Assembly: GCA_014526335.1 (NCBI GenBank)
Contig: JACTAT010000035.1
Coordinates: 2,271,452 to 2,335,451 of the forward strand
DNA: 64,000 nucleotides
Reading direction: 5' to 3'
DNA from: Chrysaora quinquecirrha
Lineage: Eukaryota; Cnidaria; Scyphozoa; Semaeostomeae; Pelagiidae
In this document: positions 2,857 to 57,100 of the stretch, one piece after another
How the letters are laid out: each line of letters opens with the position of its first letter
Position numbering within the stretch: position 1 is the first letter of the stretch
Program-made: the position numbers and the translations under genes
The notes under the pieces: model-generated
What the model saw: only the letters and a program-made list of their open reading frames with translations
The model's database searches: none
What the model was told of the DNA's origin: nothing

Positions 2857-2957
2857 TTGTTGACTGGCTTCCCCTCCTGAACGAGGCTGCAGAAAAAGCC
2901 TCTTTTTCCTTTTCTTGTTTCAAACTCTTTTTACTTGCATTCCATAGATGTATTCAT

Positions 2958-4231
2958 TCAATTTATTTGCATCTTTTTTTCTATAAATAAAAACATACAA
3001 CTACCATCGTCCTGAGCAATCAGATCTCCAGCCTTGCAAAAGGTTAGCAATCGCAACACCGCAACCCAATATTTTATGCACTTCCATGACAAGGAGGGGA
3101 ACAAACACATTGCAAATCTTGCTAAATTTATGAAGAGAAATTTTTCGATATCCCAGCAGCGTCTTTCGGCGGTTGCAACGGTTACTGGAATCGTTACGAA
3201 GAGGAGGACCAGTTTATAAACTTCAGGGAATGATGAGCTTACCCTGCTCTCGAGCATCAAATTTGAAAGATCCATGACCGACTCCTTCTCCGAAATTTTA
3301 GGTCTAAATTCTTTGACAAAGGACCTTAGCTCTGTTTCTAAGCAATCTGTGAAATCCATTTGGTACTTCTCAAGTATTCTTCTTGAAAAAACAGATATGT
3401 CAGCAACACTGCATTTTACCAAAGCTTTTGGGTGTAGAAAACTAAAAAGACTCGTTACTAGACTTTGCCCTTCAAATCTACTTCGTAACTGCATAAGAGC
3501 AGTATCGACTGTTTTGTAAAAAACTCGCACTTTAAAAGATTCTTCGGTATCAGTGAGGCATTCATCCTCCGACCATTCATCAAAGAAACGTTTGACTCTT
3601 CGTCTTCTTTTTTGAGTGAACGTCAGAGAAGAATTCCATGACTTTGCCAAAGCTGAGGCTGTCAGCTTAACTGAATCCCAAGAGCATCGGAGAATAAGAT
3701 GCTTAATCTCATAGCCTTGTCCCTTATCTTTCCAAACTCGATTCCAAGGTTTTCGATGAATGTTTTCGCAGTAGAGGCTATCCTTTCGCGTCGGGACTAG
3801 TTACCTTCACAAAACCCATGAAGCTCTCAACAACTGAGCAATTATCTCCCTCAATCTGAACCCAACGTATGACAACACTCAGTTGATCAACTCTAGAAAT
3901 ATCACTCGTCGTATCTAAGATGATGGACCAAAATGGAGAAGCATTAATCTTCTTGACAAGAGATGATCTTACCGCCTTTGCAAGAAGCTCTATCAATTCA
4001 TTCTGGATAGTAGCACTTAGGTATTTTGTAGCCCTGGCAGGGAGGGCAATAACTTCTGAAAGCACTTCGTCGTATTCTGCCAATAATGCAACCAGCCCAA
4101 GGAAGTTTCCTCCTTCACATATTCCATCCTTGAACTCTTCTCTGTGGCCTCTAAAGGCCAAAGATAAAGATGCAAGAGTCAATATTATTGTTATGATACG
4201 ATTAAGGATCCTATTCTCCTGTAACAACTAA
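2958..4231 (-). pseudogene. hAT-family (ZMYM1/DUF4371-like) transposase relic
   Basis: The minus strand encodes two pieces of one transposase-like protein in different frames. The 5' piece (3778-4227) has LAFRGHRE, GNFLGLVALLAEYDEVL, KYLSATIQNELIELLAK and FWSIILDTTSDISRVDQLSV, the hallmark of DUF4371/ZMYM1-type hAT transposases; the DTTSD segment is the catalytic-core region. The 3' piece (2958-3650) ends in VTIPVTVATAERRCWDIEKF, matching the hAT C-terminal dimerisation motif (TLPVTVATAERSFS), and then degenerates. About 130 bp between them have lost the frame, and the zinc-finger N-terminus is absent. It sits just upstream of the RUFY start in the same orientation and is clearly inactive. 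Confidence 0.75.
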
Positions 4232-28987: not shown

Positions 28988-29088
28988 TCTCGACTAGTCT
29001 ATATTTTGCCTACAGAAGAAAAGTATAAATCAATAATGGCACTGAAAGCAGGTCCGTCTCATCATTATACTCCAACTGGAAAAAGCAA

Positions 29089-32608: not shown

Positions 32609-32664
32609 TTACTTCTTCCATTCTTCCTTACTTCTTCCATTCTTCCTTACTTCTTCCATTCTTC
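32609..32664 (+). repeat. Triplicated 19-bp unit at the pseudokinase stop codon
   Basis: Unit TTACTTCTTCCATTCTTCC occurs at 32609-32627 and 32628-32646, with 18 of its 19 bases at 32647-32664. In the mRNA the first unit contains the stop codon and the others follow in the 3' UTR. Confidence 0.9.
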
Positions 32665-32949
32665 AGAGAAAGTTTCAAGTCCATCGCTTTCATCCTCAGC
32701 TGTCTTTTCTTTGTCAGCTTCTTCAGATTTTGGGACTTCGGATTCAGATACTTCAGGCTGTAGAATATCTGCAGTAGCGTCCGTAGAGTGAACCACAGTA
32801 TCGCTTTCCGTACTTTTCGCGCAGTCACCAATATTGTCCTTTACTTCTTCCTTTGGAGGCTGTTCAGCTTCACTGCCTAATGCAAAGCTATTCTCGATGT
32901 TGACAAAACTGTCACTCAAGTCCTTCATATGACTAAGCAGTTCCTCGGA
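32647..32949 (-). other. Acidic C-terminal exon of the pseudokinase gene
   Basis: The exon follows acceptor TTTGACAG and encodes SEELLSHMKDLSDSFVNIEN, then an acidic Ser/Glu-rich tail ending SEEWKK and TAA. The last 18 bases including the stop are repeated twice more downstream as 19-bp units (32609-32664 in all). Confidence 0.85.
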
Positions 32950-33123
32950 CTGTCAAAATAAAGAGGGATAAAAAAATTCCTGCTTTTCTTGCTTTCTCGT
33001 AGAGTTTTAGTTAAATCTTTTAAGTAAAATTACCTCATAAATGTAGACATGTTTTTGCAGCGCCCACATTCAGTATAATTGCCTAACTACTTAGTATAAT
33101 TAGCCAGTTAGTTATTTGGCTAT

Positions 33124-33168
<45 letters not shown>

Positions 33169-36100
33169 AAGCAAGTAACTTAGTAAGTTAGTAAATTAGG
33201 TAGTTAGTTAGTTACCTAATACTTGGTTTCGTTTAGATCGAAAATTGCGAGAAATAGCGGAATCTTCGAAAATGTAAGATGCGAATAATTACTTCCCGAA
33301 AAATTACGGAGAGTGAGCGAATAAGCCATCTCTTAAGCCAGTTTTTCATTCATTAGATAATTTCTGTCATCTGATGCTTCTGGCTATTGCTGAACGTTTG
33401 GAGCTTGATCGATCGATGTCACTGGAACTTCTGCCTCCACTGTCTCTTGCAATGGCCACGAGGTTTCGGGTAAAGTCTAAACAATTTTGAATGATGCAGC
33501 CTAAAATTCTAGGATAACTTTTCGTGTGACTTGTGATGACCGTTTCCTTATGCTTGCAGTCTGTTGTGCTCTTGGGAAAACAAAGCCATACTCAAGGAGG
33601 CAATTGCTGTCATATCGCCGGCTGTTTTCAAAACAGTTTAGAACCTGATTGGAAGCATTTTCTTTTAACAAATTCAGGGACAACTAATGTCAGGCACTTT
33701 AAAGCAGGCATTATGGCGTTTTTAACAGTTTCCAAGCTTTGAGACTGTTTTGAGTGTTCAACACAACTACTGATGTTTAATTTCGATAATTAATTAAATC
33801 TTAAGTGTTTGCCGGTAATTACATTAAGCATTGCAATTGCACTGTCAAAGTTGATTGAAATATATTGAATTGAAAAAATCATATAGATGAACTTACTGGA
33901 GTCTGTGGTCGTTCTTCAGCCGTTTCGAAGAATGCATGCATCAACGCATCTTCAGCTGTCATTCGAAGGCTTGGTACTTTGTTAAGAAGACATTCGAGTA
34001 AGTCACCAACTGGACTGTCCTGAAAAAAGAACGCGAACATATATTACTTGTTAAGCTTTTGCAGATCCTTATTGCCTAGTGTATTATCAACTATCAGCTA
34101 TGCACAAAGATCCCACAAACCAAAGTAAATAGCTTCGGAAAACCTTGAGAGAAACTGCAGATGAAGCTTTCCCTTTAAGCAAAAAAACAATATTGAACAA
34201 AGAAATTGAAAAATAAGGGTATGATCACCGAAAGTAAAGGCCCATTTCCACTTCGTTCGCATTCGCTGTTGGCTGTTCACTAGCCATCAAAAATGGCGAA
34301 CGCCACGCGATTTTGATTTACACACAAGTCAAGCTAAAGCTTTCGCAAAAGTTTTACTTTTTTATCGCCTAAAATTGATCACGAAGGCTGTATTCTGTTC
34401 GCAAGCGAGCGGCGAACTGCAAATTCGCTGGCGAACAGAGAATGCGAACAAAGTGGAAATACGTCTTAGGGAATAAGTGAAAATTTCGCCTTGACAAGAA
34501 CCTATCTACTTTATCTATGAGGCACAAGAACAGTAGCATACGTTGACAAAAAAAATCAATATTGTCACAACAATTTTGTCTCTCATTTTAGTTTGTGTCA
34601 CAGAGATAAGTTCTAGCGATACACAAAAATAATATTGACTACGCGTTAAAACAAAGTAGGTATTACCTTGACTACATCTTTTAGTATTGACCGCAAATCT
34701 CCAGATAACTTGGCATCAGGAAAGTACGCCTAAAAGCAATACTTTCATGTCAAACAGAGTTTGTGAAATACAAACAGTAATATAAGTCATGTAAAGATCC
34801 ACGTAAGATTACTCAATGTGTTTGACATTCAATTACGAGCAGTGCTGACAGAAACTAGTTCTCGCGCACGTGTTACTCTTTCAGCTAAGTATACGGCTTG
34901 AAACTAACCACATCGCAAGAGTTTATAAATGTGTTATAAACAGTATTTCCTCTTAAAAAAGGTCTTGTCTCTCCCGCGAACATTGTAAATTTAATAACAC
35001 CTTCCTCTTATATAGGCCTCTCCTGTCCCTCACACATTACAAAAAATGTCTCCTTACATTAACACCTTTCTTTAATAAACACCCACAAATTCCCTTTAAA
35101 TTTGGCTTTTATTATAGGAACTACGGTATACTATTCACAGTAAGCTAACAAAATTAGCGGAGAACCAGCTAACTGATTTAAAATTTCTTGAGGGTTTCTA
35201 TCTTTTTCCATTCCTGCCCCATACAAGGACTTGTATTAGGCTCGAGTGTGTGGAGCTGGGGAGGTCTGAACAGAACAGCAGCAATACAAACAGAGATTCA
35301 AGAAAACTTGAATGACTTAAAAGAGTTTCTCAGCTCCTTGAGATGAACTGGCAAATCCAGAAACAGTACTCTACTATCATGTTGTAAACGATTTCTTACC
35401 CAAAGCATCAGTAACCCGAAACAGAAGACATCAAATTGAGGAGATGGTAGCTCTGATTCAGCATTGATTGATGGATAGTTGATAGATGATGACAAACAGG
35501 ACAAATCTTTGAATCTCTCTGCCTGAAATGTCAAAATAGCAGATAAATATGAAACACTGTATTTCTTGTATTCTAAAAATTAATTACTGTCATAAGACTT
35601 CAGATAGCTAGAGTAGAACCGAGTAGTAAAATTGAAAAGAGGTTCTACCTTGCAATATAATTGAAACTAGGGCATGGCTGAAGGTGATAAAAAAAGAGCT
35701 ACATCAACTCCAGAAATATAAGCTCAGGCCCAAATGTCTTTTTCTGGAACATTTCAAACTCAAAGTATAATATAAGGAATATGAAAAGTAAAGGTGTTAC
35801 AAAAAAATTAAAAATTAAAACGACAGATCAACCTGACTCAGAGCATATTCATATATATCTTCACGATTCAGAGAGATTCCCAGTAATTTGTCATCACAGC
35901 CAGGTAGCAAAGCATTTCAAGAATATCAACAACAATATTCTGATATTAAGTATTTTTTAATTCTACGTAAAATCTGAAATACTTATAAAGCTACAATACC
36001 TCATCTTTTGCGAAATTGGGTTCTTCCAAATGAGCCGACAGATATCCATCTTCCTTTGTAATGAAGACACTTTTTGGTGAGACACTACCGTGGGTTACAT

Positions 36101-39100
36101 TGTCTTTATGGAGACAAGCCAGGCCTTTCAAGATTCCATGAAGCATTTTGTGGACTTCCTATAAAGATAAACAATGCTTGACTCTTGAAACGAAGCAGCA
36201 GGCACAAGAAGTCTTTTGATAGAGTATATCTATCTCTCATATGATGCACATAACCTATAATAGGCCTTTCGTGCGGGGTTATGTTATATGACAGCTATAA
36301 TATAGGATAAAATAAGTCTTTAAAAGGATAAGTCATTATTACCACTGAATCTGGCTTCGTCTTCATTAACTCTAATAAGTTGCCTTCATTGTAAAATTTT
36401 GTTTGAAGGTATCCTTTTCTTCCACCCTGACAAGAGGAAAATCATATTTATTTGATCATAAGAGAGGCGACAATAAGAACTACAACTTATTCTGAGGCTG
36501 ATTCCAAGAATTTTGGTTTAATTAACTTTCATGATGATAGATAATACCAGGAAAAAATTACAAAAGTTCAACCTGACTCAGAACATCTATTTATAGTATC
36601 TTCATAATTCAGAGAGATTCCCATTTGTTTGTCATCATAGTCAGGAAGCACAGCATTGCATTAATAAGAGTTAAATCCCAATGTCCTACATTTACTCTTT
36701 ACGTCTGGCTTAACGCTATAATCCAAGTATTTTCACTTATCATGGACTGTCTTTTTTAACTGGTCTTGCCTATCTTCACGAAAGCTTAATTAGAATGAAT
36801 ATCTCTTGGAATTAGCCTCAAAAGATGTCATGTTTATTGTCGCCATTACAGTCATCGAATTCATTATAAAGAGACGTTTTCCTGCCAATTCACCTATCCA
36901 AAATAATGCTTTATTGTAATGAAATTGGAGAGAATGGCTCTCTGTTCTCGCGGCTCTCTAATGGTCAGGTCTCTATTGTAGAGAGTGGCTTAATACAACT
37001 ATAACTAATTCTGTTTTACTAGAAACTATTTTGACGATATAAAGCTGACATATGCCTATACATCATGAATAATAATGAAAGTACTCTTAGCTACAGTGTG
37101 GGCCATTTATTCTCTTTTCATATTTTCTGAGACCTCCTGCAGCATATTTTCACCACCTCTTATATTTATGTTGAACGAGTATTTAGGTGTGACCATGACT
37201 ATGGTGTAACAAAAAGCAAATTGACTTCTTGAAGAAAAATACCCGTTTGCTTTATTGACCAACCGTTTATTCTGAACCTAAGAGTACAAAACAGAGCTCA
37301 GCTGCAAGTTTTATGAAACGTTACAGCAACACCATGTCTGATTGAGTGGACTTCAGCTTATCACAGTTGAAACAGGACGAAACGCGCATTGAAACGCCAT
37401 AAATTTTCTAAAACAAAGACTGATAGAGGACGATGTTCTAACGATTGGCACTTACCTTATCAAAGAAAAGACCATCCAGAGAAACAAGATTTTCGTGTTT
37501 ACATTTTGAGTAGCTTATCATGGTAGATTTTAGTTTCTCTTTATTACAACGGTCGTTGAGTGAGTATTCCTACAAGACGTAGCAATAATATGAATGAACA
37601 AAGAACCCTCTGTAAACATGAATGAACAAATAACCCCTCTGCAACTCTGCCACAATGACGAACTTCTGAACAGATCCAGAACTGGCTCTAAGAAGTGCCA
37701 GAACAGGTACGGATCCAAGAGATTCCGTGTAAACGGAAGGCTTTTTCGAGCCAAAACATCGGACCAGAGCCGGTCCAGTTTCTCTCGTGTAAACGGGGTC
37801 TCAGTTAGAACAGAAGAGAATCTCATGCCACACCTACGACACGCCTATTTTTCATTGTGCAGCTAAAGCCCACTTTTCTGTACTCTGACTGAAAAAGTTT
37901 GAAAACGAATAGTTGCTAACTTTGCAACCTGGGTAAGTAGACATAGTGTGAAATCCTATTGACAATTATCCTGACTCAGGCGGAAAAAGAGCATAAAAAT
38001 GTTCACAGAGATTCACGGTGTACTTGTAATCATTGTCAGGTTAACAATAGAACTAAGCCTACATTTGGTATTATCTTGTTTCATATCCAACAGAAAAGCT
38101 ATATTACCGCGCCCAAGACACTACAGCCCTAAAAAGCCACCAAGATTAAGTATACATGCTGTGTTCACACATTTGCACTACTCTTTGAAATATTGACAAC
38201 TATTTCTAAAGCTCACTCTAGAAGTTCAAAGAGCTGCAAGGCATTTAAACGTGTTTAAGTATCTTTGCTTCCTTCTTTCGAACTACACTAGATTCGCCCT
38301 AGGTTCGTCAGTCAAGTTCCTTATTGGCACAAGCTCGGCATCCTGAAGCAAATCGAACATCCTGAAGCATATATTGAATTTGAAAAAGTGGTGAATCAGT
38401 GGCGGTGGTGGTCATTGTTGAAGGAAGCATATAAGAAAAATTACCTTTATCACGCAAGGTTCTTGGTTGAATTTTGTTTTGAATATTACTGGCTGCTTGG
38501 TAGCAGATGAAAGAAGAGGCAAAGCATGATGATCGTAATGTTCCAGCTCACGAACGCGTACCAAGCCATTTGTTTCCTAAAAGAAGGAATGACATCTTAA
38601 AATGCGCTATTGTAATCAAATGGAGCAAAGTCACAACCCTTGGGCAGGCTACAGTATTAATGTCCATACATGATGTTGTTGTCGATGCACAGAGTAAGTA
38701 TATAACGAGGTAAACCTTACAAGTATAAGAACACGAATATACAATTTCTCATGTTGATTCATGTGGCTTGTCTAACTCAGAATAAATCATCTTCATGAAT
38801 GTTTCAGAGAGATTCCCATTAGTGTATCATCATCGTTAGACATTAATTAATAAACATAGAGACTAGCAATAGTGGTTTCAGGAAAAGATGGCGGTTGTTT
38901 CTGCCCTTTTATTTTGTGAAGGACCATCCTCTTCTTAGCTCTATACCTTGTTGTAATCTTAAACCTGCATTCACGGTCATTACTAACATTTACTGTTACT
39001 ATCATATTGCACTAATTTCCATCATTACGTGTATTCATTAAAATTCATTGCATTGATAGTGTAGAGATATATCATCGATTTTATGCAAGGTAATAGCTGA

Positions 39101-42100
39101 GATATTTAGGTAGGTAGCTTCAATTAAGTAAGATTTGACAAAACAAAAAATTACAAAGGGAGAAACTACAATCTTTTCATTTAACATAAAGGTACATCAA
39201 GGTGAGAATCATGTTTATACAGGTTTCAGACTTGACACCAAGAACAAGGTTTTGCTCAAGGCAGGTAAGGCTTTAAACAACATACTTCTACAGAAGCCAA
39301 AATAATTTTCATTTTACTAAAGGTACTCGAAAAGAATATACACAGAAAGAACATACTACATGTTATAATCAGGTCAAATTTAGCAAGGGATTCCCAGCAT
39401 TAAAGTTGACAAAATGAATATAATACCAACCAAGAATAGTGCTATGCCAAGGTCAGCATGCTGGATTGGCAGCTCTGGGAAATGAGTAGCAGCAATACTG
39501 CTTAGCTCTTCCTAAAGGAAATAGAACAAAGGCATTCGTCATAGGATATGTTGTATTTCAGTACTTATCATATTCAGAACGAAAGAAATCAATAATTTTC
39601 AACTCAGACGGATCAACTCGGATTCTCATCAGATATATATTGCAGAGAGATTCCCATTAGTTAATCATCATTGTTGAAATAAATACTAATATACTACGAA
39701 AAAACAGCAAGTAACAATTAATCTACAAGTACATAAATATACTAAGGGTTCACATCAATGATGTATTAAGTGACCAATATCTTAGACTCTACCACTACTT
39801 ACAAGGAGTTTGTGTTCTTCCACAAAAACAGCATGAAGCTCATTTCGTATAAATTCAAGTTCTTTCTCAGTCTGCAAAAAGATAGTTGAACCACATGATT
39901 AACGCCAGACAGTCTATCATAAAAGAATAGATTACATCAACTGAGTTACTGATGTATTTAGTCAGCAGGGCTTTGGAGCTTCTACTCCACTAGCTTTGTA
40001 TTTAAGCAAACCAACAAGATTAAATGGGCAACAAAATTTCTCTTATTATTATCACTTAAAATCTCGCGGAGATATAACTTAACAGGTTAACATTAGAATA
40101 TCTGCAGGGAATACCAGCAACATTATAATCAATAGCAAAATCTTAAATACAGTCCAATATAGTGACATTTCAGTACCTGTGCTAATTGCTCTTTTTCATC
40201 GGGATCCTGAAAATGGAAAGGATCTACGATAAAACTACAATAGACAAAATAAAGAAATTGAGATTTGAAATAAAAGGCTAGAAATTTTGCTAGCGAATGG
40301 CAGTGAGAAAAGAATGACTAAAACTCCAGTAAATAATCAGCAAGGAAGTTACTGACTCAAAGCATTGATCAGGGTGATGATTTTACCAGCAAAGATAGTC
40401 GTTGAAGCCATTACTCGTTAACTACTTATAGACCTGCACAAGAAACGATGGGATTATCTTGGTTGTGTTTCCCAGACACGAGAAACAAAAAAAGAGATGG
40501 GTTCTTGCATACAAAAAACGAGTAAAAATCACACATTCAAAAGTTGAATGTTGCTAGAGTCTTCTACCACTTTAGGGTTTTCATGCTTGGTGAACGGTCT
40601 AAATCTGAAATTTATTTCTTAGTTGCAAAGTTTTGCAAAGTAAAAAAGCCTTAGTGAGTGAAGTCAACATATGAATTATTTCTGCACTCACTTCTTCAAA
40701 ATCTCTTCTGTCAGCTTGTTTATGTCTAAATTTCGATTTCAGATTTTTGAGTGTGTTTCTTGTGCGTTTAAGTTTTGAAACATCGGGAACTTTATGTGTC
40801 CATTTGGTGATATCATCCTGCAAAAGATTATTTCACATCCTTGAGCTTAGAGGTGAAAAGCATTAGAAGTACTTTTATGCAAATTAGCCAGTTGCTCACA
40901 GATTATCAATGTAAAAGATTAGTGTTTAGTACGACCAGTAACGAAACAAAAGCCATGGAAAATTTGAGAAGCATCATTAGGGTGAAGTATTAAAAGAAGA
41001 AAACGAATGAGGACATCCAAGAAATTTAAAGGTTTAGGGACTTGGCTAAAAGATCAAACATTGTTGATGCGTCACTAAACATTGTTTGGCAAGTAAAACT
41101 CCCTGAGCAAGGTTTCTGAAAGCTACAAACAATTTTGTGTGTTTGTATCAGAAAAAATGTCTGTTTGACAATATGGTTGCCAAAAAGTCAACCAAGACGT
41201 TTGAGAACTAGAATTCAAATCTTTGGCAAGCAATTTTCGATCGCTTTGATCGCTTAATTTTGACGGAAATCAAACACTTTGTTCTCGTTGCTCACTCAAT
41301 TTTTAATTAATTACTATCAATTATCATTTATAATATTATCGCCAATAAACATCAGTTGGTCGATTCAATCCACTTTTCAAAGAGAAGAGACCCACTTAGC
41401 AAACGGTATTGCAAAAGATATGTACCATATAGTTTTACATCAATGTTGATGTCAATTCGCAGAGGAAGTATGTAGGAGGAAGTATGTAGGAGTAAGAGTT
41501 ATACTTTGCAAGTATAAGAATAGGTAGATATCACTTCTAATATTGCTTGATTTGGTTTGTCTAACTCAGAACATATCATCTTCATGAATATATCAGAGAG
41601 ATTCCCATTGATTTATCATCATCGTTAGACACATTAACAAATCAAAATGCAGTCTAGATTTCAATTGTTTTACCACCTGTTTCTAAATTAGGAAGGTAGT
41701 ACGAAAAATTTGGCTACGACGCTTTGGACTATTACAGAGAAACTGTCAAAGAACACAAATTGAATCAAATTGTAGAAAAGAAGATTAGGTGGCAACCCTA
41801 AAAGGTCTAGAAAGAAAACTCTGCGGAGAGACGGTCCATTTAAGGAAAGAGAATTTTCAAGGTGATTTTGTGATTTACTCCAAAATAGTACCTTTTCCTT
41901 CTCATACGTCTGGAGCAGTTCATCCCTACAAGAAGATAATACCATTTAAAGAAATGACTTTGACATTCAAAAACGCTACAATGTTTCTTTTACACAGAAT
42001 CTGACATACAAAGGGTAAAGGACCTAGAGGAAAGTATTATAGTACGAATCAACATCCAGAAGACAGCAAGAAACATGTTGACATGTACGATGGATGATCT

Positions 42101-45100
42101 GACTCAGATGTTGACGAGCTACAACTCTGCATTAGTAAACATCAGCAAAAGTAACCATACTGTAGCCTGCTAATAATTTGGTAGTAAGCCACAAGCAAAT
42201 AGTGCACTTATAAGAAAGGCCTTCTCTAGCTATCAAACCTTGAACTATGCTTTGTTTTTCTGGCAATTTGGCAACTGCTTTAACGAAGGCTCATATGTGC
42301 TGTGTTTAATGTATATAAAGATATATATATAAGATAAAAACAAAGGAAACTCAGAAGAAAGATTCAAGTTCTTTAAAACGGAACCAGCTTCATCCTTTGT
42401 GGAGGAATCTTCAGCCTTCAATGCGTCTGGTATTTTTGAATCGTGTGGCTGGTGTAACTATTCAAAACAAAACGGTTTTGCCATAATGACGGCCTTTGAT
42501 TTTGGTTTATGTCACATGCATAGAATTAATAAAAGGAAAGACAAGACAATAGGAACCAAATAAACAGTAGTGAATTTGGCTTATCTTTATCTACCTTAGC
42601 TTCTTTATATCGCCAAGTTCAGCATTAATAGCATTAACCAGAGCAACAACGAGATTCGTTATCATCTGCTTTGCTTCTGTATTTATATTGGATTCCTAGA
42701 AGAATTTGAAACAAATAAAAAATATATATATATATAAATAAAGACAATTTTGATTTAAACGTGACTCGATACTTGACTCAATTTTATAAAGACATACATT
42801 AAATAAAATTTTGAGAGCTGCAGACAAGAATTTTATAAACTCGTTGTAGACCAAGTTTATTTTCTTTAAAATTTTAAATCTCAGTCACCACAAGTCTTTT
42901 CAACACTTTCTAATCATTTCAAAACACTCTATTTGGGGTTTTGCTGGTTTTATAGGATACAACCAAACAGCTAAATGAGCATATGCTCTTGACAGCACGA
43001 CAGGCAACGTACCTTGATCTGTGAAACTTCACTGGAAATAGCCTTTGAGTAGTCTTCTATTAGCTTATCCACAGTCTCAGTGCTTTGCTCTACATTTATT
43101 TCTATGTCAATGAGCATTGGTTGGTAGTTCAAATCCACTTTCTAAACAGAAGAGTACACGACAATTTAACAAACAAGAAGAAGGAGAAACAGAACAAAAG
43201 GATATATTTTTCCACAATTGGCATACCACAGTTGATGAGATTTGAACCCAAGACTGCACGATCAGAGAGACAACGACGACTCCACTGAACTGAGAGCTCA
43301 ATGAAATCGTCGAGTAACTGTCCAAGTCATACCGCTTAACACTCTCCTACCTTGAGCCTTCTTCAGCAACATAACTGTTCATATATATTTGTCATCAATG
43401 GTGTATATATATATATATCATATATCATATATATATCTAGTCATATATAAGAGAAGTATGCAAGAAGTTAGTTAAACAACACTTTGTATTATAATATGTA
43501 TACATTCTATTGAAATTTCCAATGTTGCCTATAACAAGTTTTGTCTAACTCAGTAGAGATTGTCTTCACGAATATATCAGAGAGATTCCCATAGGTATCA
43601 TCATTGTTAGACACTTGTGTTTAGGCTAGGCCACTTCACAATATCAAAAGTAGAGTATAACAAAAAGCAGTACTGTGTAGACAGAAGTAGGTAGCTTTTC
43701 CTTTGGACTCTTAAACGAAAATTCCATGTCACTATTTCTTGTTTCCTAATTTTTGTTCCAATTTTTGTGCCAATAAAGGTTAAAATTTATGATTGGCTCC
43801 TTTCCACCAAAATTCAGCTGATGTTTCGTCTCAGAAACTAAGAAACTTTCTTTCCTATCTGATGTATACTAAGTAAACGATGATTTAGCAAAAAGAAAGA
43901 AGGGTGATACAAATAGTTAGCTAAACTGAACCATACAGAAGTATATTGATAAACGTACCAACTTATAAAATCATCATCATTATGTCTCTCACAGTTCTAA
44001 ACCGTCATATGAGCACACGTAAAGCAGAAAGAGACTGAAGGTCTGAAAAGGACTGTTTACCAACCAATTAAAGAAAAATAGTTCTAGAAAAGCAAACTCG
44101 AACCTGTTTTAGGTTGTCAAGACAGTTGCTCAGAGTCAATGAGCAGGCATTTGCAACACTTTGTAGCTCTTTCACGCTATCGATTTTCTTCAACTAGAAC
44201 AAGGAGAATAAACAACTTTAAAAATAAAAACATTGTCTTCAGATTTCAAAATTAAAGACGTCAAGTAAACACTACGTATATGGTGGGCTGCAATTCTTGC
44301 CAAAACAACTTGAAACCCCCCATAAAATGTTACTTCCAATAATCTAGCCATCCTATATCTACCAATATCCCCGCAGCTGTCTTACCCCCCCCCCCCCAAC
44401 TGAATAACAATGCTTGCACAAAATATCTTATCTATTTGCCTCTGACGAATTTTGCCAATGACAAAAGGGTCACTTCATATCAAATTCATCACACAAACTT
44501 TGTCCTTGAATGACGAGGAGAAAGGACAGAGAGACCAATTTTGATGTGTTCGGGAAAGATTGTAGTTCCAACAGTGTCATTAGCAGAAACGATTCATACT
44601 TCAACGATAAAAAAGTGGAGCCTCCAAGCAACGGATACCTATGGAATCAATGTTGTCAGTGATACAGAGCTTTTCACTTTATGAAGGTTGGTTTCCACGA
44701 GGAAGAACATTCCAGAAATAAGATATTTATCTGATGTTTGAAGCAGTACTTTGTATAGAGGTGCTAATCAATAAAGGTCTTTATGCATACTTCACATTTT
44801 GCAATAATGACTGTAAAGCTGATTTGTATTGGTGGGGGTTAACTTTCAGCCGGAATTCCAGTCCGGATAGCAATTTAAACATATGTAACAGGTGTTTACT
44901 ACACGTGCAAGCACTATTAGCCTGCAAATGCGAAAAGTCCAGTATTGATATATCCCTTGTCCTCTGCCTGCAGATAACTATCACATGCAAAAGCGAGGAA
45001 CAAGGGAACTTTGGAGAAACAAACATCTTAATTACAGAAAACAAGTTTTGAGGCATCAAACACTGACTGCCTAGAATTGAAGAAATGTAGAAGAAAGACA

Positions 45101-48100
45101 TTATGATTAGAGGTCAATTAAAAGGAAAAACAAAATTTCTTTTACTGATTAAACTGGAATCGAAACAAGGCAGTAAAGCTTTAGTGTGTTCAAACTTCAT
45201 AACATATTAAACCAAACTTACTCGCCAATTTTCATACGCTTGAACTGCTTCGGTTACAGATGAAGTATCTAAAGTAATGAAATTAAAGGAAAGAAATCGA
45301 GAAAATCAAAGAGATAGCTAAGCGAGAACAGTCTACCATCATCATGGACAAACATTAGAAAAGAGCAAACTTTAAAAAAGAGTTCATTACAAATTCTTGT
45401 GAGATAATTACCTGTCGAGGTTGGTGGTAATACGTATTTATTTCTTATTTCAGACAACACTGTCTAAAACGAAAAATAATTAGCATTATTAATTGTTATT
45501 CAAAACATTTATTCATTGGATATATAAAATGATACTTCATCCTAAATTTTGAGAATTTTATAAATAGTTCACTAGCTATACCTCGAGTTCCTTTTGTCTT
45601 TTTTCAAAATGTAAATTTCCACTAAATTCAAGAAATCCTTGCATTTTTTCAAGGAGACTCTGTCTCGACTCGTCTCTTTTTGCCACCAGCTCTCCTAAAG
45701 ATTCCTAAAAGCGAACGATTTTAAAAAGCTAGATCACGTTATAAAGGATAACGGATGAAGGATAATCAGACAACCGACTGTGGCGTAACGACATTTCAGT
45801 ATTTTCTGAACTATCATAATAGAAAGAAAACCATTTCTGCTGTACCAAAACCATACCTACTGCAAGAATTTGTAATCGGTTAAGATCATCAGCTATCAAG
45901 TGCTTTTCCTAATGGTCATACTGATACGTGGAGTTGATAAAACTGAATGAATGCTTGTGTCAGTGTCCGTTATTGCGTATCTGAACTGAACATAGGAAAT
46001 ATTCAACAAGGTTTAAAATGACGCTGTTTTTACAACTAGATTTCACCTTATCTGCACAGTTCTTCACATCTGACTGGCGTTGTTTTAACGTCTCTTCAGC
46101 CTCAAGTAACTGTTGAAGAATGCAAATGATTGTAAACATCTATTAAATATCTATTGTACATTATAATTTCAAGATAATGAGAGACAGAGGAAACATCTTC
46201 AAAGATATATGTTCTGTAGAACTGAAAGTCTTCATCTTAACATCAACTTACAACATAAGCATCCTTAATGATGCATCCTTAGCTTCGATTTATATTTTCA
46301 GGGGTTGCAACAATGACAGGTCCCAGACAACAAGTACACGTTTTTTTATAAGAAAAACCTGTATAAGAAACACGAGGATGAAATTTGGGTCAAACATTTT
46401 TGCCATCTCCAAAACTATTTGAGATACCCACGAGCAAAGTTCACCAGCGTAAAGCCCTTGCCCGGAAACGCATTTTAAACATGTTTTGGAGAAGGGTAGG
46501 GGGTGGGTGACAAATTAGTGAAAAAGCGTTGTAAAAATAGGAAACAGGCAGGATAAGATCGAAGCAAAGTGTTCTTATAAAAAAAACGTGTCTAGATAAA
46601 TATGAATACACATGTATTATAAAACATAAACACAACTGTCAGTTATTGTGTGTATCTGGTGTTTACTACACGTGCAAGCACTATTAGCTTGCAAATGCGA
46701 AAAGCCCAGGTATAATATCTCCTTCTACCTCTTCTTGCAGACAACTATCACCGGCAAAAGTGAGGAATGAGAAGGATACCTATAACAATGCTGCTGCAAA
46801 AGAAGCATCTGACTGAGTCTGTTTGACGTGATTCATCAGGCAATCTGAAAGCTAGGTTACTATCTTTGCAAGGAACTGCATAAAGCGATTCCTAAACATA
46901 TACATATACTTGTCACATTCTGCCTCAGTCTTTGCGCAATTAAGAAAAAACCATTTACCACTACAGCAGGCAAACTGCGATTGGGTCCAGTTGCTTAATT
47001 CTACCTTTTTCCAAATGAAACAAGTGATTCATTTATAAAAGCATTTTCAAATCTTCCCATATTAAAACAAAAAGGCCGATTCTGTGTAGAAAGAGAGTTC
47101 GTTTCTTCACTTGGACTCTTCAATTAATTCCATTGGTCTTCCCACCCTATCTCGCGAGCTAATGGTGTTAAAAACACAATAACAATTCAGCTTCATTTCT
47201 GATTGGTGCATTTCGATCAGCATGATGGCATAAATACCGCCTTATGAAGTTCCGTCTGTTTCTGACGTTTTCTCTGAGATGTGTTAGACAAAAACTCTAA
47301 TATATAGGTCATTAGCAAGAAAAGCACTGCCCCTTACCTCTTGATAAGCAGTCATGCTGCTTAGATTTATAGACATTTCCCTGTCGGCCATTAAATCAAC
47401 TGCCGTTTTAAGATGAGGATTTAGAGAGTCTTCCAGATGCATTTCATCTCTTAGTTTCCGCAATGCAGCGACCTCATCAGAAAGACTGTTCAGCTTTTTC
47501 GACATAACCGGACTATTGCTCTGTAATGTATTTTCTTCTAAAGACTTTTCAAGTCGACTGTTATCTTGTTTGAATTTGTCCAACTGCGCTTGCATAGCCT
47601 AGAAAGAGAAGTTCAGATTTCTTCACAGTAACTTTGGTTTGAAGGAAAAATCAAAAAGCTTTTGCAAAAATTAAAGAAAAATTCCATTTTCTCAATCATT
47701 AAACAAGCGATGTTCAGTTCTCATCCCTATATCAGTTTCTGTCTCAATGGCAACCAATTTGTCACTACACACTCGAAACCCACATACCTTTACTACCAAA
47801 ATCTGAATTTATGCACTTTAGAGCATTGATATATGCAATAACAACATGTTTCATAAAGTTTGTCCAGATCTGAACTAATCTTTGGGTTTGAATTGCCATG
47901 TTAAAAATGACGTCATCAAATGACAATTTTTAACATGACACCATATCTCACATGAATGGTTGTAGGAAAAAATTGTGTTCTTTGCCTGCCGGGCAACATT
48001 ATACCAATTTTAGTTGTTTTATCTCAAATGAAAGCCGAGATTAATAGGGATTGCATATCCCCCCATGATGAGAATGTTCTGAAACCCCCAGGTGAGATGG

Positions 48101-51100
48101 GATTATGCTAATGGATTATGCCACCTTACCTCAACTTTGCTCTTCAACTCTTGGTTCTCTCTTGACATTTGGAAGGAGTTTGCACCTCTTGGTGGTCTAG
48201 GAGCAAAAACTTAATCTCAGCTGTTTCTATTGACTTTAAGAAGCGATCTTACCATTTTAACAAGATACAAGAATTGCGTTGAAAAAGTTATGAGTTAATG
48301 GAAAATCAGTCTTCAAGCAGACAAGGTCAGCAGCTTCACGATAGTCATATTTAATTTTGCCACCGATCATTTCAGGTTGGTATTTTCTGATGCACAGCTG
48401 CATGCCATTCTTTCATTTCACGATTCAAAAAAGCTGCAGAAACCAGCTTTTTAGCATCCTTCAGGAGACCCCGAGAAGCAAAGGAGTTGATTCATCAGAA
48501 TCAAAAATTTAAACGGAATATTAGAGCACAAAACGAGAACAAAACTCTTTATATCTCTCTGCTTCACCAAGCATCGTACCTCGTTACATCAAGTGTGAAC
48601 CTAGCTTTTAAGACTTGTAATTAAGAGCCTTAATAAAGATATTATCTACCTGATTGCCTGTGCATTGGCAGACGGTTTAGTAAAAGAAGGTCTTTCCTCC
48701 ATTAGTTTTGGCTGAGGGAAAAGAACAGTAAAAAATACATCAATGATCTTCAAAAACTATTCGAAGACGTTCAATATGAAGTAACATCTTTTAGAAATGG
48801 ATATTAATGATAATATGCCTTATGCGTATCAGAAAAAGGTTATAAAATGAATGCTCGACAATACTGTAGCCAACAATGCCTGCCAAAAGTGCTGAAAAAC
48901 CAGTTCAGAAGACTGCTTTGACTGTTTGCTATTCCCCTTCTCCACTCCAATCCCTTCCACACTGATGATGAAGGACAACATTCTTAGCTACTTTTGGGTT
49001 TGCATGATTCCTTAGATCGTTATATTCAACATCAAAAATACTTAAAGGTATGGCGAGATTTGTATCTTGTAAAAACTAGATTATCTGCAAATTCTATCTA
49101 AGAGGCTACTTTGAATCGAGGGTTTTCCAACTACTGTTTGTACCCACTGAAGCTTCTAAATCACAGGAAGTCCTTCTTTTTTTAATAGGGAGTTACAAGC
49201 ACGCTGTTTGCTTGACTCAGACAACACTGATATTTCTTCATATAGTTTTTCAGAGAGATTCCCATTTGCTGTCATCATTGTCAAACCTACAGCTTCCCTT
49301 ACGAACGTTTAAGTGAGGACTTTTCAGGTAATAATTACTAAGGAAGATAAACTAGTTTCGTTTTGCAATTAGGTAGCAGTGCCATTTCACCTTTTCAATT
49401 ACTGTAGCATGCCCAGCGGCAACAATTTTTTCTGCAATGTCTGTATTAGTTTTGTCCAAATAGGCAGTGACAGTCGTGAAATCACCTTAAAAAGGAACAA
49501 AAAAGTCAGTCTTTAATTCGAAAACATTGTCAATAATTTAATAGTGATTTCAGTAACTAAAAATTGTTTCTAGAAGTAGTGTAGAAACCCAACCTTTAGT
49601 TGTTTCAAATCGAACAACTTGGTCCAGAACCATCTTTTTGAGGAATTCAGTTCCCTTGAAAAGAAAAACATATATTAGCATTCAAAAGCTCGCTATAAAA
49701 ATCCAGACAAAAGAAAAGTTATTATCAATAACTCTGTCCGTATGATAGCATGGAAAATTACCAGGAAGAAGAATAAAATTCAAATTACTTGAAATGGTAA
49801 AAAAATGAAAGACAAAGAAACACAGTTATTCATCAGAGTATAGATAAGTATTTTACCCCAGCCTGCAAGACATGAAGGTGCTGCGGCCTCGTCGTGTAAT
49901 CCAGCTGACGCGTGGTGTCAGGAGCTCAATGTAGTTAGGGTTCGAGCCCACACATGGTAGCGTCACAGCCAGTGTCGAGGTATCGATTAGATCACCTACT
50001 ACTGAGATCCTAGCAACTGACACTAAATCACCATTTCACCTTCACATTCACCAGCTTCACTTAAAGGTAAAACTCTCCGTTTTCTGGAACCAGGAAGAAG
50101 CATTGTATAATTATGTCAGACATTAGTGAATCATATCAAAACCAATGCTTAAATTTAATTCTCGTCATTATGCATTAAGTACACTGCAGATTACACTGCA
50201 GATTAACGGACACTTGAAACAACAGACACCTGACTTCAAACAAAGATTTTACCCCAAAATTGCACACAATAATTTATTGAGCGACCTCTATTCACCGGAC
50301 ATCTCTTTACAACGGACAGAATTACAGCATTACTGACCCAGACAATACAATACCATAAAGACCATAACCATAACCTCTTTTAGTTTTTACAGCATAACAA
50401 TTTTTCATTCAAATCCAATTGCCAGAACTGTCAAAACTTTAATTGTAGCGTCTTAATTTTCATTGTGTTATAGAAGTGTTATCTTTCTTCAACTTCCAGT
50501 AAGGAACAACAGGTTCTCAAGGGTTGCTTCTCGAAGAGTCAACTTTGTTTTTGCAAAACATTTGTACTTCGTTCACTTGTGGTAAATTCCACATTAATTT
50601 CATTACAATGTTCTGAGCTTAAACATTGTGTTCCTTTCAAGTGTCATTCTTTTCATAATACCTTCTGAGAAATTTTCTGTACAGTATGGAGAAAATTAGA
50701 CATGTATACACAGCTGACGCTTCTCTTCGTACAACAGACGAGATATATGGTCCCAAACAGTGGTACCAAATATTGGTATTGAAATATTGGCCCCACAGTT
50801 CTCTGTTATACGAAGGTTAGAATGAAACATTAATCCAAGGGTTCTTACCTGTTTGAATTTTATAGATGCTTCATCTATATTGACAGGCTTAATGTCAAGT
50901 ACATACTCCTTGGCACAAGGTACAGGCTGGTCCAATGATGGAGGAAGAATGACAAGACTATTGAGGTCAACAACCTCCCAGTTACCATAATCGATATATC
51001 TAACTTTGACCTGAAAGCAAAACAAACACTGCTTTCAAACTGACGTGATTAATCCAGCTTTATATAAACCAGTATGTAGATTTCAACCAATAAAATAAAT

Positions 51101-54100
51101 TCAAATTACTAGACTGATCAATCTCTTGTAACATTTGTTAAATACTGTAGTTTACCGTATTTTCTCTAATAAACGCTGCCCTCAGATAAACGCCGCACTT
51201 CGAGCCGAACCTTTGTAATAAACGCCGCCCTCTATTAAACGCCGCTCTCTATTAAACGCCACATTCTGGAAAGTGGCGTTTATTAGAAAAAAGATCAAAC
51301 AAGAAATAACAAATAGTTTATACGAATCTCACTTGTTTTCTATCAACAAATTCTTCTTTATTCTACAACAACGTGAACAATTCTTCAGTGAACTCTAAAT
51401 TTTTCACGCAATCCTTTTGAAGTCAATTTACCCTTTTCTCATTTCTCGCTTTTTAATAAACGCCGCCCTCTGATAAACGCTACCCTCTATTAAACGCCAC
51501 ATTCAAAAATTTGATTAACGCCATACGGTAGTTTAACTTGCAGTGCAAATGTGGTATAAAAGAGCAACTGAGTTTGTAGCTACGAGTGAACGTGAGTGAA
51601 TAAACATTGTTTCTCAAACATCTGAGATTGGCACATCAAAACGATCAGTCACATAACAAAACATTGAAATTAAACAAGCATTAATTGCAATAAAATGAAA
51701 GCCTAGCTTGAGAGCATTACTAATGTAAAACAAAGAAATCCAGGCCACAAAGGTTTAGACACCGAAAGTAGTCTAAAATCAAGAATTAAGATTTCCAACC
51801 TTCATTCCTTGGTCAGGGTATTGCTTTTCGACTTTACATCTGTACCAGGCATCATCCTCAGAAAACTTGCATGCAAAGAGCTAAAATAAAAGTTTGGTGT
51901 ATAACAATCAAAATCCAAGCTGAATTTAAATTATAACTCAAAATTTGAGAAGAAAAAGGTGCCCAGAAGCTTCAAACAGCAACGGTAACAGCAAGATGAA
52001 TCTCAATTCACTATCCATTGATCTACAACTCAACAAGTAACTGAAGAAAAAGTCCCTACCTTTCCGTATGGTATGGTTTGTCCAGAGAGGTGTGGTAACG
52101 TTGGACACTGGGTCTGTAAATCTTCTGAAATTTTAGCTAATGCACTTGCTATTTCATGAACAATAGCCTGTTAAATACATATAAAATATTAACAAGGCTC
52201 TTTTTATAGAATTCTTAAGATTATGTACTAAAAATTGAGTAGTTATATTTCTCTTACCTGTCCCCACATCTTTACTGGGTTATCTACATGCATAATCAAC
52301 ACACTTTCTTTCTACAGAAAAAAGAGAAATCACGTCAATGGAAGGAAATCATTATCTTGGTAAAGAGCTCCAACGACCCATTTAATATAGGAACAACAGT
52401 AGATATGGGTCCAATCTACACAAGAGCCTTAAACTTGCCTAAAGCAGCAGGCTGCAAGTGCCCAAACACAAATACCTCGATTTCCGTCCATATTTTGAGA
52501 AGCTTTGCATTAGATGTCTCAATTTGAATTCGCAATACATAGATTTCATTGAAAGCGAGCTTTGAGTTGGTGATGGCAACTAAGGACAATTTGGAGATGC
52601 TCCGGACCATCTCCAAAGTGCACAAAGTGGCATCAACAGCTTCATTCATCTTTGCTTTAAATTTGGGACTTGGAAGAATACTCAAAGCAATCATATCTAC
52701 ACGACGGCACAAAGCAAACTTGGGATAATCCTCTCAAGAATGCAATAGGGCATGTTTTGGGCACTTGCTTAGATCAGCCAATATATATACAAAATACCTG
52801 CACAACTTTTTCTTTTGGTGGTGTTGCAGCATTATTAGTTGGGTGGCCTAAAAAAGAAGTATGTATAAATAAAAAGGGTCTTCTCTCAGAATCACAGCAT
52901 GCAGTATACTAATGCTTCCACTTAGAGCTGATACGCAGTATGTATGAGACCAGTGATGACATATGACTCTGAAGCATGGATCAAGTCTACTAAAAAGAAC
53001 ATAGCAGGCTAAGATAAATCCTTGTAAACTAATCGAGGAAGATGTGCTGAGTGAGAACGACAGATAGGCTTGAAGATCAGGACTTGACGGACAGATTGGG
53101 ACTGAAGGACAGCATCATAGATATGACAAACAGAAATGCTACGAGACAGCTTTTCCCATTCTAATGAGGGACACTAGGAAGGGATAAGGCAAGATCTCAA
53201 TTGCAAAGTAGAGAGGCAAGGAAAGGAGCAGACACTAGATGAGCTGGAAGGATGCAATTATGAAGATGTACAAAGGTGATTAATACTGCTCCAGCAGTAT
53301 TAATGGTCACAAGACAAGGTCTTTCCCAGGAGCTGACATAGCTAGTGACCATAATCTTGTGATGACAACGTTGAAGCTGAAATTAAAGAAGATAAAAAGA
53401 CCAAAATCTTTAAGAATAAAGTATGATATAAGCCGACTGAACGATGCAGAAACGTCGGAACACTTCAGGGCTAAAATAGGTGGAAAATTTGCACCACTAC
53501 TAGAAATGACTGAAATGCAAGAGATGACAGACTTGTTCACCGATGGAATGAACGAAACAGCATTGGAAGTCCTTGGAAAAGAGAAAAAGAAGAAACAACC
53601 TTGGATGACACATGAAATAATGGATAAATGTGATGAAAGAAGGAGGCTAAAAGCAGACAAATTCAAAGATGACGAATGTAGCAAGAAATATAGAACTGCC
53701 AACAACATGGTGAGGAGAGAAATAAGGAAGGCAAAAGAAGAATTCTTGCAAAAAAAGTGCAAAGAAATTACAACAACATTCGAGAAAAATGATTCGAGAA
53801 CGGCTTACAGGGTAGTCAAGGAACTAACCAACGAGAAAACAGTGAGAGTATCAGTAATAGAAGATGCAGATGGGAAGTTGCTAACTGAAGCAACAAAAAT
53901 CCAGAAAAGATGGACTGAATACATTCAGGAACTATACAACTATCCGATTTCGACAGATGATGACATCATAAAGACATTACAACAAGAAGGTCCAGGTGTA
54001 AAAGAATGTGAGCCCGATATCCTGATAAGCGAAGTTGAAGAAGCTGTAAGAACTTTGAAGAATGGCAAAGCTGCCGGTTTCGACAACATACCGTCAGAAC

Positions 54101-57100
54101 TACTAAAACACGGTGGTGAAGTCATAGTCAAAATACTGCACAAAATTTGTAATCTAGTGTGGGAGAGAGGAAAATGGCCAACACAATGGACGAAGTCACT
54201 AATCATTCCACTTCCAAAGAAGGGAGATTTGAAGAAATGTACAAATTATAGAACGATAAGTTTAATAAGTCATCCAAGTAAAGTACTACTGAAGGTCATC
54301 AATAACAGACTAAAGATGAAAGTAGAAGAGATATTGGCTGAGGAACAGGCCCGGATTCAGAAGTGGGAGGAGCACTGTAGAACAGATTGGAAATGTAAGA
54401 ATTCTAGGGGAAAAATACCGCGACCACCAGATGGAGATCCATCACAACTTTATAGATTTTAAAAAAAGCATTCGATAGAGTGTGGAGGAAAGCACTCTGG
54501 CTAGTGATGAAGAAGCACAACGTTGGTACTGGGCTCGTAAACGTGATTGAATCTCTCTATAGCGACAACAGCAACGCTGTGATGACTAATCTCGGTTACA
54601 TGGAGTGGTTTCGGACGACAGTCGGTGTGCGTCAAGGGTGCATCCTCTCCCCATGCTTGTTTAACATCTTCCTAGAACAGATCATGTCAGACACACTCGA
54701 GAACCATGCAGGAACAGTAAAGATCTCGGTAGGCAGATAACTAATCTGCGGTTCATGGATGACATAGACCTCATTGCTGGCTCCAAGGTAGAGTTGGCAG
54801 AGCTCACTACTAGATTAGACACAACAGCAAGAAAATACGGAATGGAAATCAGCGCTGAAAAAAGCAAAATAATGGTCACTTCTAGAGTTGAAGCCGAAAA
54901 CGACATCTATACTGGGGTCAAAGTTGGTGGAACAGAGCTGGCAGAAGTGAAGGCATTCCAATACCTCGGCTCAACATTGAACGCAGATGTTACTTCAGAA
55001 TATGAAATCAAGAAAAGGCTAGCAGTAGCTACAAACCAACTTGCAAAATTGAACAGATTGTGGGAATCCAACGGTATCTCAACTATGATGAAAGCGAAAC
55101 TACTGAAATCTTTGATAACATCCATTGCCCTTTATGGCTGTGAGTCGTGGACCCACAGCAAATATCTGGAGAAAAAGATTTGTGCATTCGAACTTCGATG
55201 CTTTAGGCGAATACTTGGGATAACTTGGAAACAGAAGGTCACCAACATAGAAGTGGAACAAAGGATGAGGAGACTAATTGGTGCCTATGAATCACTGATA
55301 GTAACAGCAAGACGTCGGAAATTGCAATGGTTTGGGCATGTGACCAGACAAAACAGAACATTAGCTCGAGACATAATGCACGGAGGGGTAGAAGGTAGAA
55401 GAGGAAGAGGACGCCCCAGGAACACATGGTTAGGAGACATCGCTAAATGGTCAGGGAAGAGTATGACGGAGTGTACGAGGCTGGCCATGGATCGCGGAAG
55501 GTGGAGGAAAATAGTGGACTTATCAAAGTGCCCCAACGGTCAAAGGGCCATGGGAGTGACATGACATGACATGACATGACAAAGGTGAGCCTGCAACTAG
55601 AGTGTACTGTGGAAAGAAAGAAACGGAGAGAGTGAGTGAATGTTAACTTTCAGCCACCCATATGCAAAGCATACAAATACCACATAAAGCATTCTGATGA
55701 TTTGACTCAGCAAATTGACTAGGCAATGTTTTTGAAAAACTACTTACTTGAAGAACTGTTATCATCCCAACAATCTTCACTCTTACTGAATCCATTTGTC
55801 ATGCTATCCTTTTGCAAACCTTGATTATTTTGTGTGAACCCAGAGGAAGATGTTGATAACCCTCCTCTTCCAAACCCTCCTCTTCCTCTTGCTGAGAATC
55901 CACCTCTTGTTGCACTCTTTTCATTTGATGTCTGTTTTGAAAACCAGATGACCCAAATCCACCACTACTGTCACCTCCACTAATAAAAGATATTAAGGCA
56001 AGGTCAGTAATTTTTTCCATACAACATGGATGTGATCGTGGCACAGTAGTTAGCATGCAGGTCTCAGGACAACAATATTGTGGGTTCAAGCCACGGCCTT
56101 TCCACTTGCATTGCAGAGATAATAACCATGGGCAAGTTGCTAACACAAATGTGCCTATCTTTACCCAGGTGTTTGAATGAGTACCTGGTAGGTTGAGCAC
56201 CATATGTGGCTGCACCCTACTATATGCTAATGTATCCAAACCAGAGGTAAAAAGTAAAGTTGACTGAGTTGCCCTTGGTTAGTAGTAGACTTAAAAATGG
56301 CAACTTTACTCTGCTTTTTATATGTATAGCTCATACACTTAGGAGACAAAAGTATTGCAACGCCTGACCTTAAATGGCAGCCAATAGTAGCCATAGGCCC
56401 AAAAACACTGACAGGCGAGATAAGAATATGGAGCAAATTCAAGTAATTCAAAATTTCTTGATTGCTCTAAATCAAAAGAGAGATGTAACAGAAGATTTTC
56501 TTATACCCTGCCTGTGCATCTTTTTTCCGATAGGTTACCTACAAAAGAAATTGCCTTACTGTATATAACAAAGAAATGATGATGGGACTGTGCATTATTA
56601 CTTCTTAAACTGATACAAAAATTATATCTTACATTTATATTCTAGTTTTAGCTGTTTTTTCAGAATTGTCAGCTGTTCAAGTTAGCTAGTGTGGCTGGTT
56701 TAAAGGTCTCATCGGCTCAGCTACCATATCTTGGATGATTCAGCCAGTGTGTACACATGTCAACCTGGCACTACAACAGTCACTGTCAGAGGGTTTCTAA
56801 AGTTACCAGTTCATCTGAGAAAGGTATGCCACTTTACAAGATCATTAAAGTCACAGTATGCAAGGCTTTTTCACCTTATTCTCCCCTTACTTACGCTTAC
56901 CCTTACCACAAACGATTCAAATGCTGCAAGACTGTTGCTTTTATTCAAACTGACGTTTACCAACATTTTATTACAACTTGACTTACCAAAAGATTGCTGT
57001 TGTCTACTGGAGAATTATTCATGTATTTTGCAGCACATATTGCATCTTCTTCATTGGTATATTTAACAAACCTGTTGTAAAACAACAGCCATCACATTTG

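What the first reader, a model, noticed from the sequence alone, without database searches (positions are those of the whole stretch)
35831..49284. Seven copies of one C/D-box snoRNA, each alone in its own intron of a Tudor/pseudokinase gene
Seen directly: seven 70-83-nt segments on the host strand share box C, the invariant guide TGGGAATCTCT, box D' (CTGC in one copy), box D and a closing stem. The stems differ between copies (GTCTAAC/GTTAGAC, CCTGACT/AGTCAGG, TTTCAAC/GTTGAAA, TTGAC/GTCAA) yet always pair. Each sits in a different intron. From knowledge: C/D snoRNAs direct 2'-O-methylation and animal copies are usually intronic, one per intron. A seven-member family in a germline-type gene is unusual, because hosts are normally housekeeping genes.
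Basis: partly seen in the sequence, partly recalled or inferred. Interest (0 to 1): 0.88.

Follow-up and report, generated by a model that had tools for sequence, protein, structure and literature searches.

The report
Seven SNORD79-type snoRNAs in one gene
Seven copies of a well-known small RNA that guides a chemical mark on the ribosome sit one per intron in a probable cnidarian's germline-type gene (STK31), the only place where copies were found in its genome assembly: an ordinary kind of snoRNA cluster in an unusual host.

Summary
All seven minus-strand segments have box C/D snoRNA anatomy. Rfam calls five SNORD79 above its curated cut-off; the other two score 44.1 and 33.4 bits against 47. 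A scan for C/D anatomy that ignores the guide finds these seven with an exact box C in 64 kb, none on the other strand and none in 30 shuffles. The closing stem covaries. Each copy lies alone in its own intron of an STK31-type gene (RRM, Tudor, coiled coil, pseudokinase). Guide plus box D' occurs exactly six times in the 328 Mb assembly, all here. Most likely function: the D' guide directs 2'-O-methylation of the 28S rRNA adenine in CGAGATTCCCA. The copies arose by local DNA duplication and look held by selection. In-gene multiplication of C/D snoRNAs is ordinary (Drosophila mfl is a close precedent); the STK31 host is what is unusual. Expression, methylation and this species' own 28S are untested.

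The parts
35831..35905 (-). SNORD79-like copy c1 (44.1 bits, below the Rfam cut-off of 47; intron 35523-35999)
36571..36646 (-). SNORD79 copy c2 (50.3 bits; intron 36427-37455)
37969..38041 (-). decayed eighth copy cX: stem and box D kept, box C, D' and guide damaged; alone in intron 37570-38444
38770..38841 (-). SNORD79 copy c3 (53.2 bits; intron 38577-39430)
39597..39679 (-). SNORD79-like copy c4, D' CTGC (33.4 bits, below the Rfam cut-off; intron 39512-39802)
41559..41630 (-). SNORD79 copy c5 (51.4 bits; intron 40818-41891)
43543..43612 (-). SNORD79 copy c6 (47.7 bits; intron 43142-44103)
49210..49286 (-). SNORD79 copy c7 (49.4 bits; intron 48712-49390)
44881..45009 (-). putative H/ACA-like RNA h1: when folded within these bounds, hairpin, hinge ATATCA, hairpin, ACA three nt from the end; alone in intron 44194-45221
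46648..46778 (-). putative H/ACA-like RNA h2, paralogue of h1 (84% over 117 nt); alone in intron 46110-47337
32653..58043 (-). host gene: STK31-type, RRM + Tudor + coiled coil + pseudokinase; 36 exons and 35 introns in my model, of which exon 45857-45908 has no support from the relative P0001
   Evidence: coiled coil is inferred from the sequence and STK31 relatives, not from a call
41343..41389 (-). possible exon relict: 77% identical over 47 nt to 43108-43154 (start of exon 43013-43141 and the adjoining intron end); suggestive only
   Evidence: not reported by BLASTN at E 1e-3

Best explanation
[not shown]
Against: No RNA or methylation data. The window species' own 28S could not be read: 22 identical requests did not complete (first, last). 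Distances of the seven from the 3' splice site run from 85 to 741 nt; only c4 lies near the ~70 nt reported as optimal. c4 has an imperfect D', and c1 and c4 score below the Rfam cut-off. The first guide base would face a C in 28S. The copies were first picked by their guide, so its invariance is partly by choice; the guide-blind scan answers this only in part, since it misses cX, the copy with a damaged guide.
Confidence: 0.87

Rival explanations
1. Only some copies (for example c2, c3, c5, c6, c7) are working snoRNAs; c1 and especially c4 are on the way to pseudogenes like cX, and the number seven reflects slow turnover rather than selected dosage.
For: c4 has D' CTGC and scores 33.4 bits, c1 44.1, against a cut-off of 47; cX shows that decay happens here.
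Against: Guide and box D are intact in all seven and the stem pairs in 48 of 49 cells; c4 keeps a perfect 7-bp stem.
Confidence: 0.35
2. The elements are copies of a dispersed repeat or a retroposed snoRNA (snoRTE) that happens to carry snoRNA boxes.
For: Several similar copies in introns; snoRNA retroposition is known in mammals (PMC8178906, passages).
Against: No exact copy of guide plus D' outside this gene in 328 Mb. A DNA search with c5 finds three sites, all here, though its reach is short: it did not find c1, c2, c4 or c7. Of the 16 one-mismatch loci elsewhere the best scores 19.1 bits with the seven-copy model, against 73-95 for the seven; the four best alignments shown have no intact box C. 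Similarity runs 18-63 nt past the RNA ends, which fits DNA duplication rather than retroposition of the mature RNA.
Confidence: 0.02
3. The RNAs act mainly in cis, shaping splicing of STK31 (as reported for SNORD2 and SNORD86 in their hosts), not as rRNA guides.
For: Many copies in one host; the 3' splice-site distances are not those of a tuned rRNA-guide array; precedents in PMC11028025 (passages).
Against: The most constrained part is the rRNA-complementary guide, invariant in seven of seven, which a purely cis role would not require.
Confidence: 0.07

Closest known systems
[not shown]
   Same: Boxes, the whole guide TGGGAATCTCT next to D', stem; same predicted 28S adenine.
   Different: Seven copies plus one decayed in an STK31 host, against one listed copy in a non-coding gas5-like host in chicken. 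That human SNORD79 lies in GAS5 is recalled.
Drosophila mfl (dyskerin) intronic cluster: four DmSnR60 C/D copies, two snm60 copies and one H/ACA snoRNA (PMC1821038, passages)
   Same: C/D paralogues, one per intron of a protein-coding gene, together with an H/ACA snoRNA; the authors infer several duplications.
   Different: Host is the pseudouridine synthase, a snoRNP enzyme; the four C/D copies sit about 70 nt from the 3' splice site; expression was shown and is sex-biased. Here the host is a Tudor/pseudokinase gene, positions vary and expression is unknown.
gas5-like snoRNA hosts (PMC2653536, passages)
   Same: Multi-intron host with serial C/D snoRNAs; cis duplication seen there too (two U80 copies in chicken).
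   Different: Non-coding host with mostly different snoRNAs.
SNORD115/116 and SNORD113/114 arrays (PMC11028025, passages)
   Same: C/D families multiplied locally.
   Different: Large orphan tandem arrays in imprinted domains; here a few rRNA-guide copies spread over introns of a coding gene.

Membership tests
Box C/D snoRNA | Box C (RUGAUGA) near the 5' end, box D (CUGA) near the 3' end, closed by a terminal stem | tested here: met
   boxes exact in 7 of 7; stem pairs in 48 of 49 cells and covaries
Box C/D snoRNA | Stable 70-90 nt RNA bound by fibrillarin/Nop56/Nop58/15.5K (recalled) | not testable with these tools
   no RNA or binding data held
SNORD79 (RF00152): copies c2, c3, c5, c6, c7 | Score at or above the Rfam gathering cut-off of 47 bits | tested here: met
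   47.7-53.2 bits, 5 of the 7 copies
SNORD79 (RF00152): copies c1 and c4 | Score at or above the Rfam gathering cut-off of 47 bits | tested here: not met
   44.1 and 33.4 bits; called SNORD79-like, by paralogy with the other five
SNORD79 (RF00152) | Guide complementary to 28S rRNA at the U79 adenine | tested here: inconclusive
   10-bp match to human and trout 28S from published primers; this species' own 28S could not be fetched (22 unanswered requests, first, last)
SNORD79 (RF00152) | 2'-O-methylation of that adenine | not testable with these tools
   needs RiboMeth-seq
STK31/TDRD8 host gene | Tudor domain and C-terminal kinase-like domain, best hits STK31 | tested here: met
   Pfam TUDOR 1e-21, Pkinase 5e-9; 9 of 10 hits carry the name serine/threonine-protein kinase 31 or 31-like, the best hit is an unnamed EukProt gene model
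STK31/TDRD8 host gene | Germline-restricted expression | not testable with these tools
   known for mouse (PMC3929691, passages); not known here
H/ACA snoRNA (h1, h2) | Hairpin - ANANNA hinge - hairpin - ACA three nt from the 3' end (recalled) | tested here: inconclusive
   present in both copies when folded within chosen bounds; with longer flanks the hinge is paired with flanking sequence in both. Three of seven pairs of the outer 5' stem differ on both sides when paired from outside; RNAalifold shows none
H/ACA snoRNA (h1, h2) | Match to a described H/ACA family | tested here: not met
   no Rfam H/ACA match; therefore called H/ACA-like only
Retroposed snoRNA (snoRTE) | Dispersed copies that end with the RNA, with A-tail and target-site duplication | tested here: not met
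   copies found in one gene only; similarity runs past the RNA ends in two pairs; A-tails and target-site duplications were not looked for separately

The most novel reading that the evidence does not exclude
The genome's supply of one 28S methylation guide, and perhaps of one H/ACA-like RNA, hangs on a germline/stem-cell Tudor gene. Methylation of this 28S adenine would then follow STK31 expression (germ cells and stem cells against soma), a naturally tissue-graded ribosome, with copy number raised to make up for a weak or narrow host.
Probability: 0.15. Interest if true: 0.75.

Novelty: new member of a known kind. Interest (0 to 1): 0.42.

Why it matters
snoRNA hosts are said to need broad expression (human data, PMC3511168, abstract and passages), while STK31 is germ-cell-specific in mouse (PMC3929691, passages). 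A genome whose only detected SNORD79 copies lie in STK31 is either a case where that gene is broadly expressed, or a natural test of whether one rRNA methylation varies between germline and soma. The gene is also a compact record of snoRNA birth and decay: close pairs with shared flanks, diverged copies and one decayed copy, all in one host.

Tried and rejected
Dispersed transposon: rejected by genome-wide pattern and DNA searches. A second guide next to box D: the sequence before D is not conserved between copies, so none is proposed. Site at 39386 (one-mismatch guide): no box C or D seen around it by eye. Weak hit at 12350-12420 on the plus strand (18.4 bits): the guide is absent. L026, a one-mismatch site on another contig: a 7-bp stem but no intact box C or D by eye; 17.9 bits. 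Retroposition: not favoured, because flanks are shared. H/ACA pair against Rfam: no family. The first alignment fold of that pair used wrong bounds and was redone; the sequence alignment there misplaces the outer stem, and neither call shows double changes; the three that I report come from pairing from the outside. With longer flanks the hinge of each copy pairs with flanking bases.

Gene model: the last exon (33384-33476) was replaced by 32653-32949 after comparison with P0001; exon 45857-45908 has no counterpart in P0001. The protein used still holds the old last exon and 45857-45908. A few exons beside RNA-bearing introns (41892-41925, 46047-46109) match P0001 by eye only, and 48650-48711 weakly (E 0.21); without them the introns would be longer but would still hold one RNA each.

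Baseline for copy number: SNORD15 gives two sub-cut-off hits on two different contigs, 48 of 24,938 candidates scored. Requests for RF00016, RF00284 and RF00049 (SNORD14, SNORD74 and SNORD36 by recall) did not complete, so whether seven copies is unusual for this genome is not known.
Full report
What is there. TGGGAATCTCT occurs exactly seven times in the window, all on that strand. Alignment shows an exact box C, the invariant guide, D' (CTGA, or CTGC in the 39597 copy), a C'-like TGAAGA (TGATGA in that copy), box D and a closing stem of up to 7 bp. The stem forms standard pairs in 98% of 49 cells, one cell being unpaired; 0 of 500 shuffles reach that percentage or the covariation score, 19 of 500 reach the count of 5 pairs with double changes, and 416 of 500 reach the count of further pair types; sliding the partners destroys the pairing. 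A scan that asks only for box C, an internal CTGA, box D and a stem gives nine minus-strand hits: these seven, with an exact box C, and two with a one-mismatch box C (one inside the host exon at 40711-40819, one overlapping c4). It gives nothing on the plus strand, and in 30 Markov shuffles no exact-C hit and a mean of 0.57 hits per strand.

What family. Rfam at curated thresholds names five of the seven SNORD79 (47.7-53.2 bits, cut-off 47). The other two score 44.1 and 33.4 with the same model over its full length, so I call them SNORD79-like. An eighth copy, cX at 37969-38041, scores 29.1 bits (E 4e-5) with a model built only from the seven. It keeps the stem and box D but has a damaged box C, guide and D', so it is a decayed copy.

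The host. A splice-aware reading of the minus strand, checked against a relative at 59% identity (P0001), gives a gene of about 36 exons from 58043 down to 32653. Pfam finds RRM_1, TUDOR and Pkinase. Of ten protein hits, nine carry the name serine/threonine-protein kinase 31 or 31-like and one is an unnamed EukProt gene model; the best named one is from the jellyfish Rhopilema esculentum at 43%, vertebrates at 22-25%. The catalytic-loop aspartate (HGS for HRD) and DFG (EPN) are missing (my reading; the canonical motifs are recalled), so it is probably a pseudokinase. The organism is probably a cnidarian, by these hits only. The seven copies and cX each lie in a different intron, and no intron holds two.

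More in the same gene. A repeat pair noticed on the way folds in both copies, within chosen bounds, as hairpin - ANANNA hinge - hairpin - ACA plus three nt, the H/ACA plan, at 44881-45009 and 46648-46778. With longer flanks both still form the two hairpins but the hinge pairs with flanking bases; in that and 4 of 200 shuffles fold as well (z -2.8 and -2.2). Paired from the outside, three of seven pairs of the 5' outer stem differ on both sides yet pair; the RNAalifold runs on the sequence alignment show no double change. There is no Rfam H/ACA match. A DNA search of the assembly with h1 finds only these two. Each is alone in its own intron (there the outer bounds were set some bases differently), so ten introns of 35 in my model carry snoRNA-like elements.

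Genome-wide. With guide plus D' as a 15-mer, six exact matches in 328 Mb, all in this gene; 17 with one mismatch, of which one is the 39597 copy (the reversed pattern gives six in all as control). Of the other 16 loci, five have a match of 16.2-19.1 bits and one of 11.7 with the seven-copy model, ten none at E 10, and the four best alignments shown have no intact box C; the seven score 73-95. The Rfam family search of the assembly returned six matches, all here, though only 62 of 130,663 first-look candidates were scored, and it did not return c4. A DNA search with c5 found three sites, all here; it did not reach c1, c2, c4 or c7, so its reach is short. These searches do not exclude a diverged copy or a differently built guide to the same site, and the assembly may be incomplete.

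How it arose. Similarity between c3 and c5 runs over 162 bp (80%) and between c1 and c2 over 117 bp (79%), 18-63 nt past the ends of the RNA, so these copies were made by duplication of intron DNA. In these two pairs boxes plus guide are 25/25 and 26/26 identical, stems 14/14 and 12/14, spacers 26/33 and 24/36, flanks 78/133 and 35/61. Across all seven, pairwise identity is 100% in the guide and box D, 96% in box C, 93% in D', 62% in the stem and 45% in spacers, gaps counted as differences. I read that as selection on the guide in each copy, with the caution that the copies were first picked by their guide and that cX, which lost it, is set aside. A 47-nt stretch at 41343 resembles the start of the exon 43013-43141 (77%) and sits where a duplicated exon would be expected, but it was not reported by BLASTN at E 1e-3; I treat it as suggestive.

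How unusual. Human C/D family members mostly share one host gene, by cis duplication (PMC8178906, passages); chicken shows the same (PMC2653536, passages). Drosophila mfl holds four copies of one C/D snoRNA, two of another small RNA and an H/ACA snoRNA, one per intron, with sex-biased amounts (PMC1821038, passages). So the arrangement is known. What stands out is the host: hosts are said to need broad expression (PMC3511168, abstract and passages), while STK31 is germ-cell-specific in mouse (PMC3929691, passages). I found no paper on snoRNAs in STK31: the five papers holding both words (search listing) show no such link in title or start of abstract. Searches for SNORD79 with host gene, jellyfish snoRNAs (10 of 94 listed) and cnidarian or Nematostella snoRNA hosts (15 of 64 listed, 2 of 2) showed nothing on this in title or start of abstract. 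Against tuned expression: distances of the seven to the 3' splice site vary from 85 to 741 nt, where about 70 nt is reported as optimal (PMC1821038, passage). A baseline for copy number in this genome could be had only for SNORD15: two sub-cut-off hits on two contigs.

Verdict. A real, well-conserved SNORD79-type family multiplied inside an STK31-type gene, with a decayed eighth copy and a possible H/ACA pair. New members of a known kind in an unusual host. The bolder reading, a methylation whose supply is tied to a germline-type gene, is not excluded and is directly testable.

Noticed in passing
44881-45009 and 46648-46778, minus strand: Possible H/ACA snoRNA pair without an Rfam family; a DNA search of the assembly finds only these two; each alone in an intron of the same gene.
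   Followed up: partly
53284-55564, plus strand: Two overlapping long ORFs that read like a LINE-type reverse transcriptase (by eye, not searched), inside an intron and antisense to the host gene.
   Followed up: no
51160-51510: Short imperfect repeats of an AAACGCCGCCCTC-like unit within a host intron.
   Followed up: no
56981-58043, minus strand: The STK31 of this animal, of P0001 and of Rhopilema (P0002) has an N-terminal RRM that the eight vertebrate STK31 hits lack in their Pfam listing.
   Followed up: partly
27219-28993, minus strand: ORFs that read like an amino-acid transporter of the APC/LAT type (by eye, not searched), downstream of the host gene.
   Followed up: no
21152-21925, plus strand: ORF that reads like a TGF-beta-receptor-type kinase exon (by eye, not searched).
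   Followed up: no
2207-4227, minus strand: Broken ORFs that look like a hAT-type transposase (by eye, not searched).
   Followed up: no
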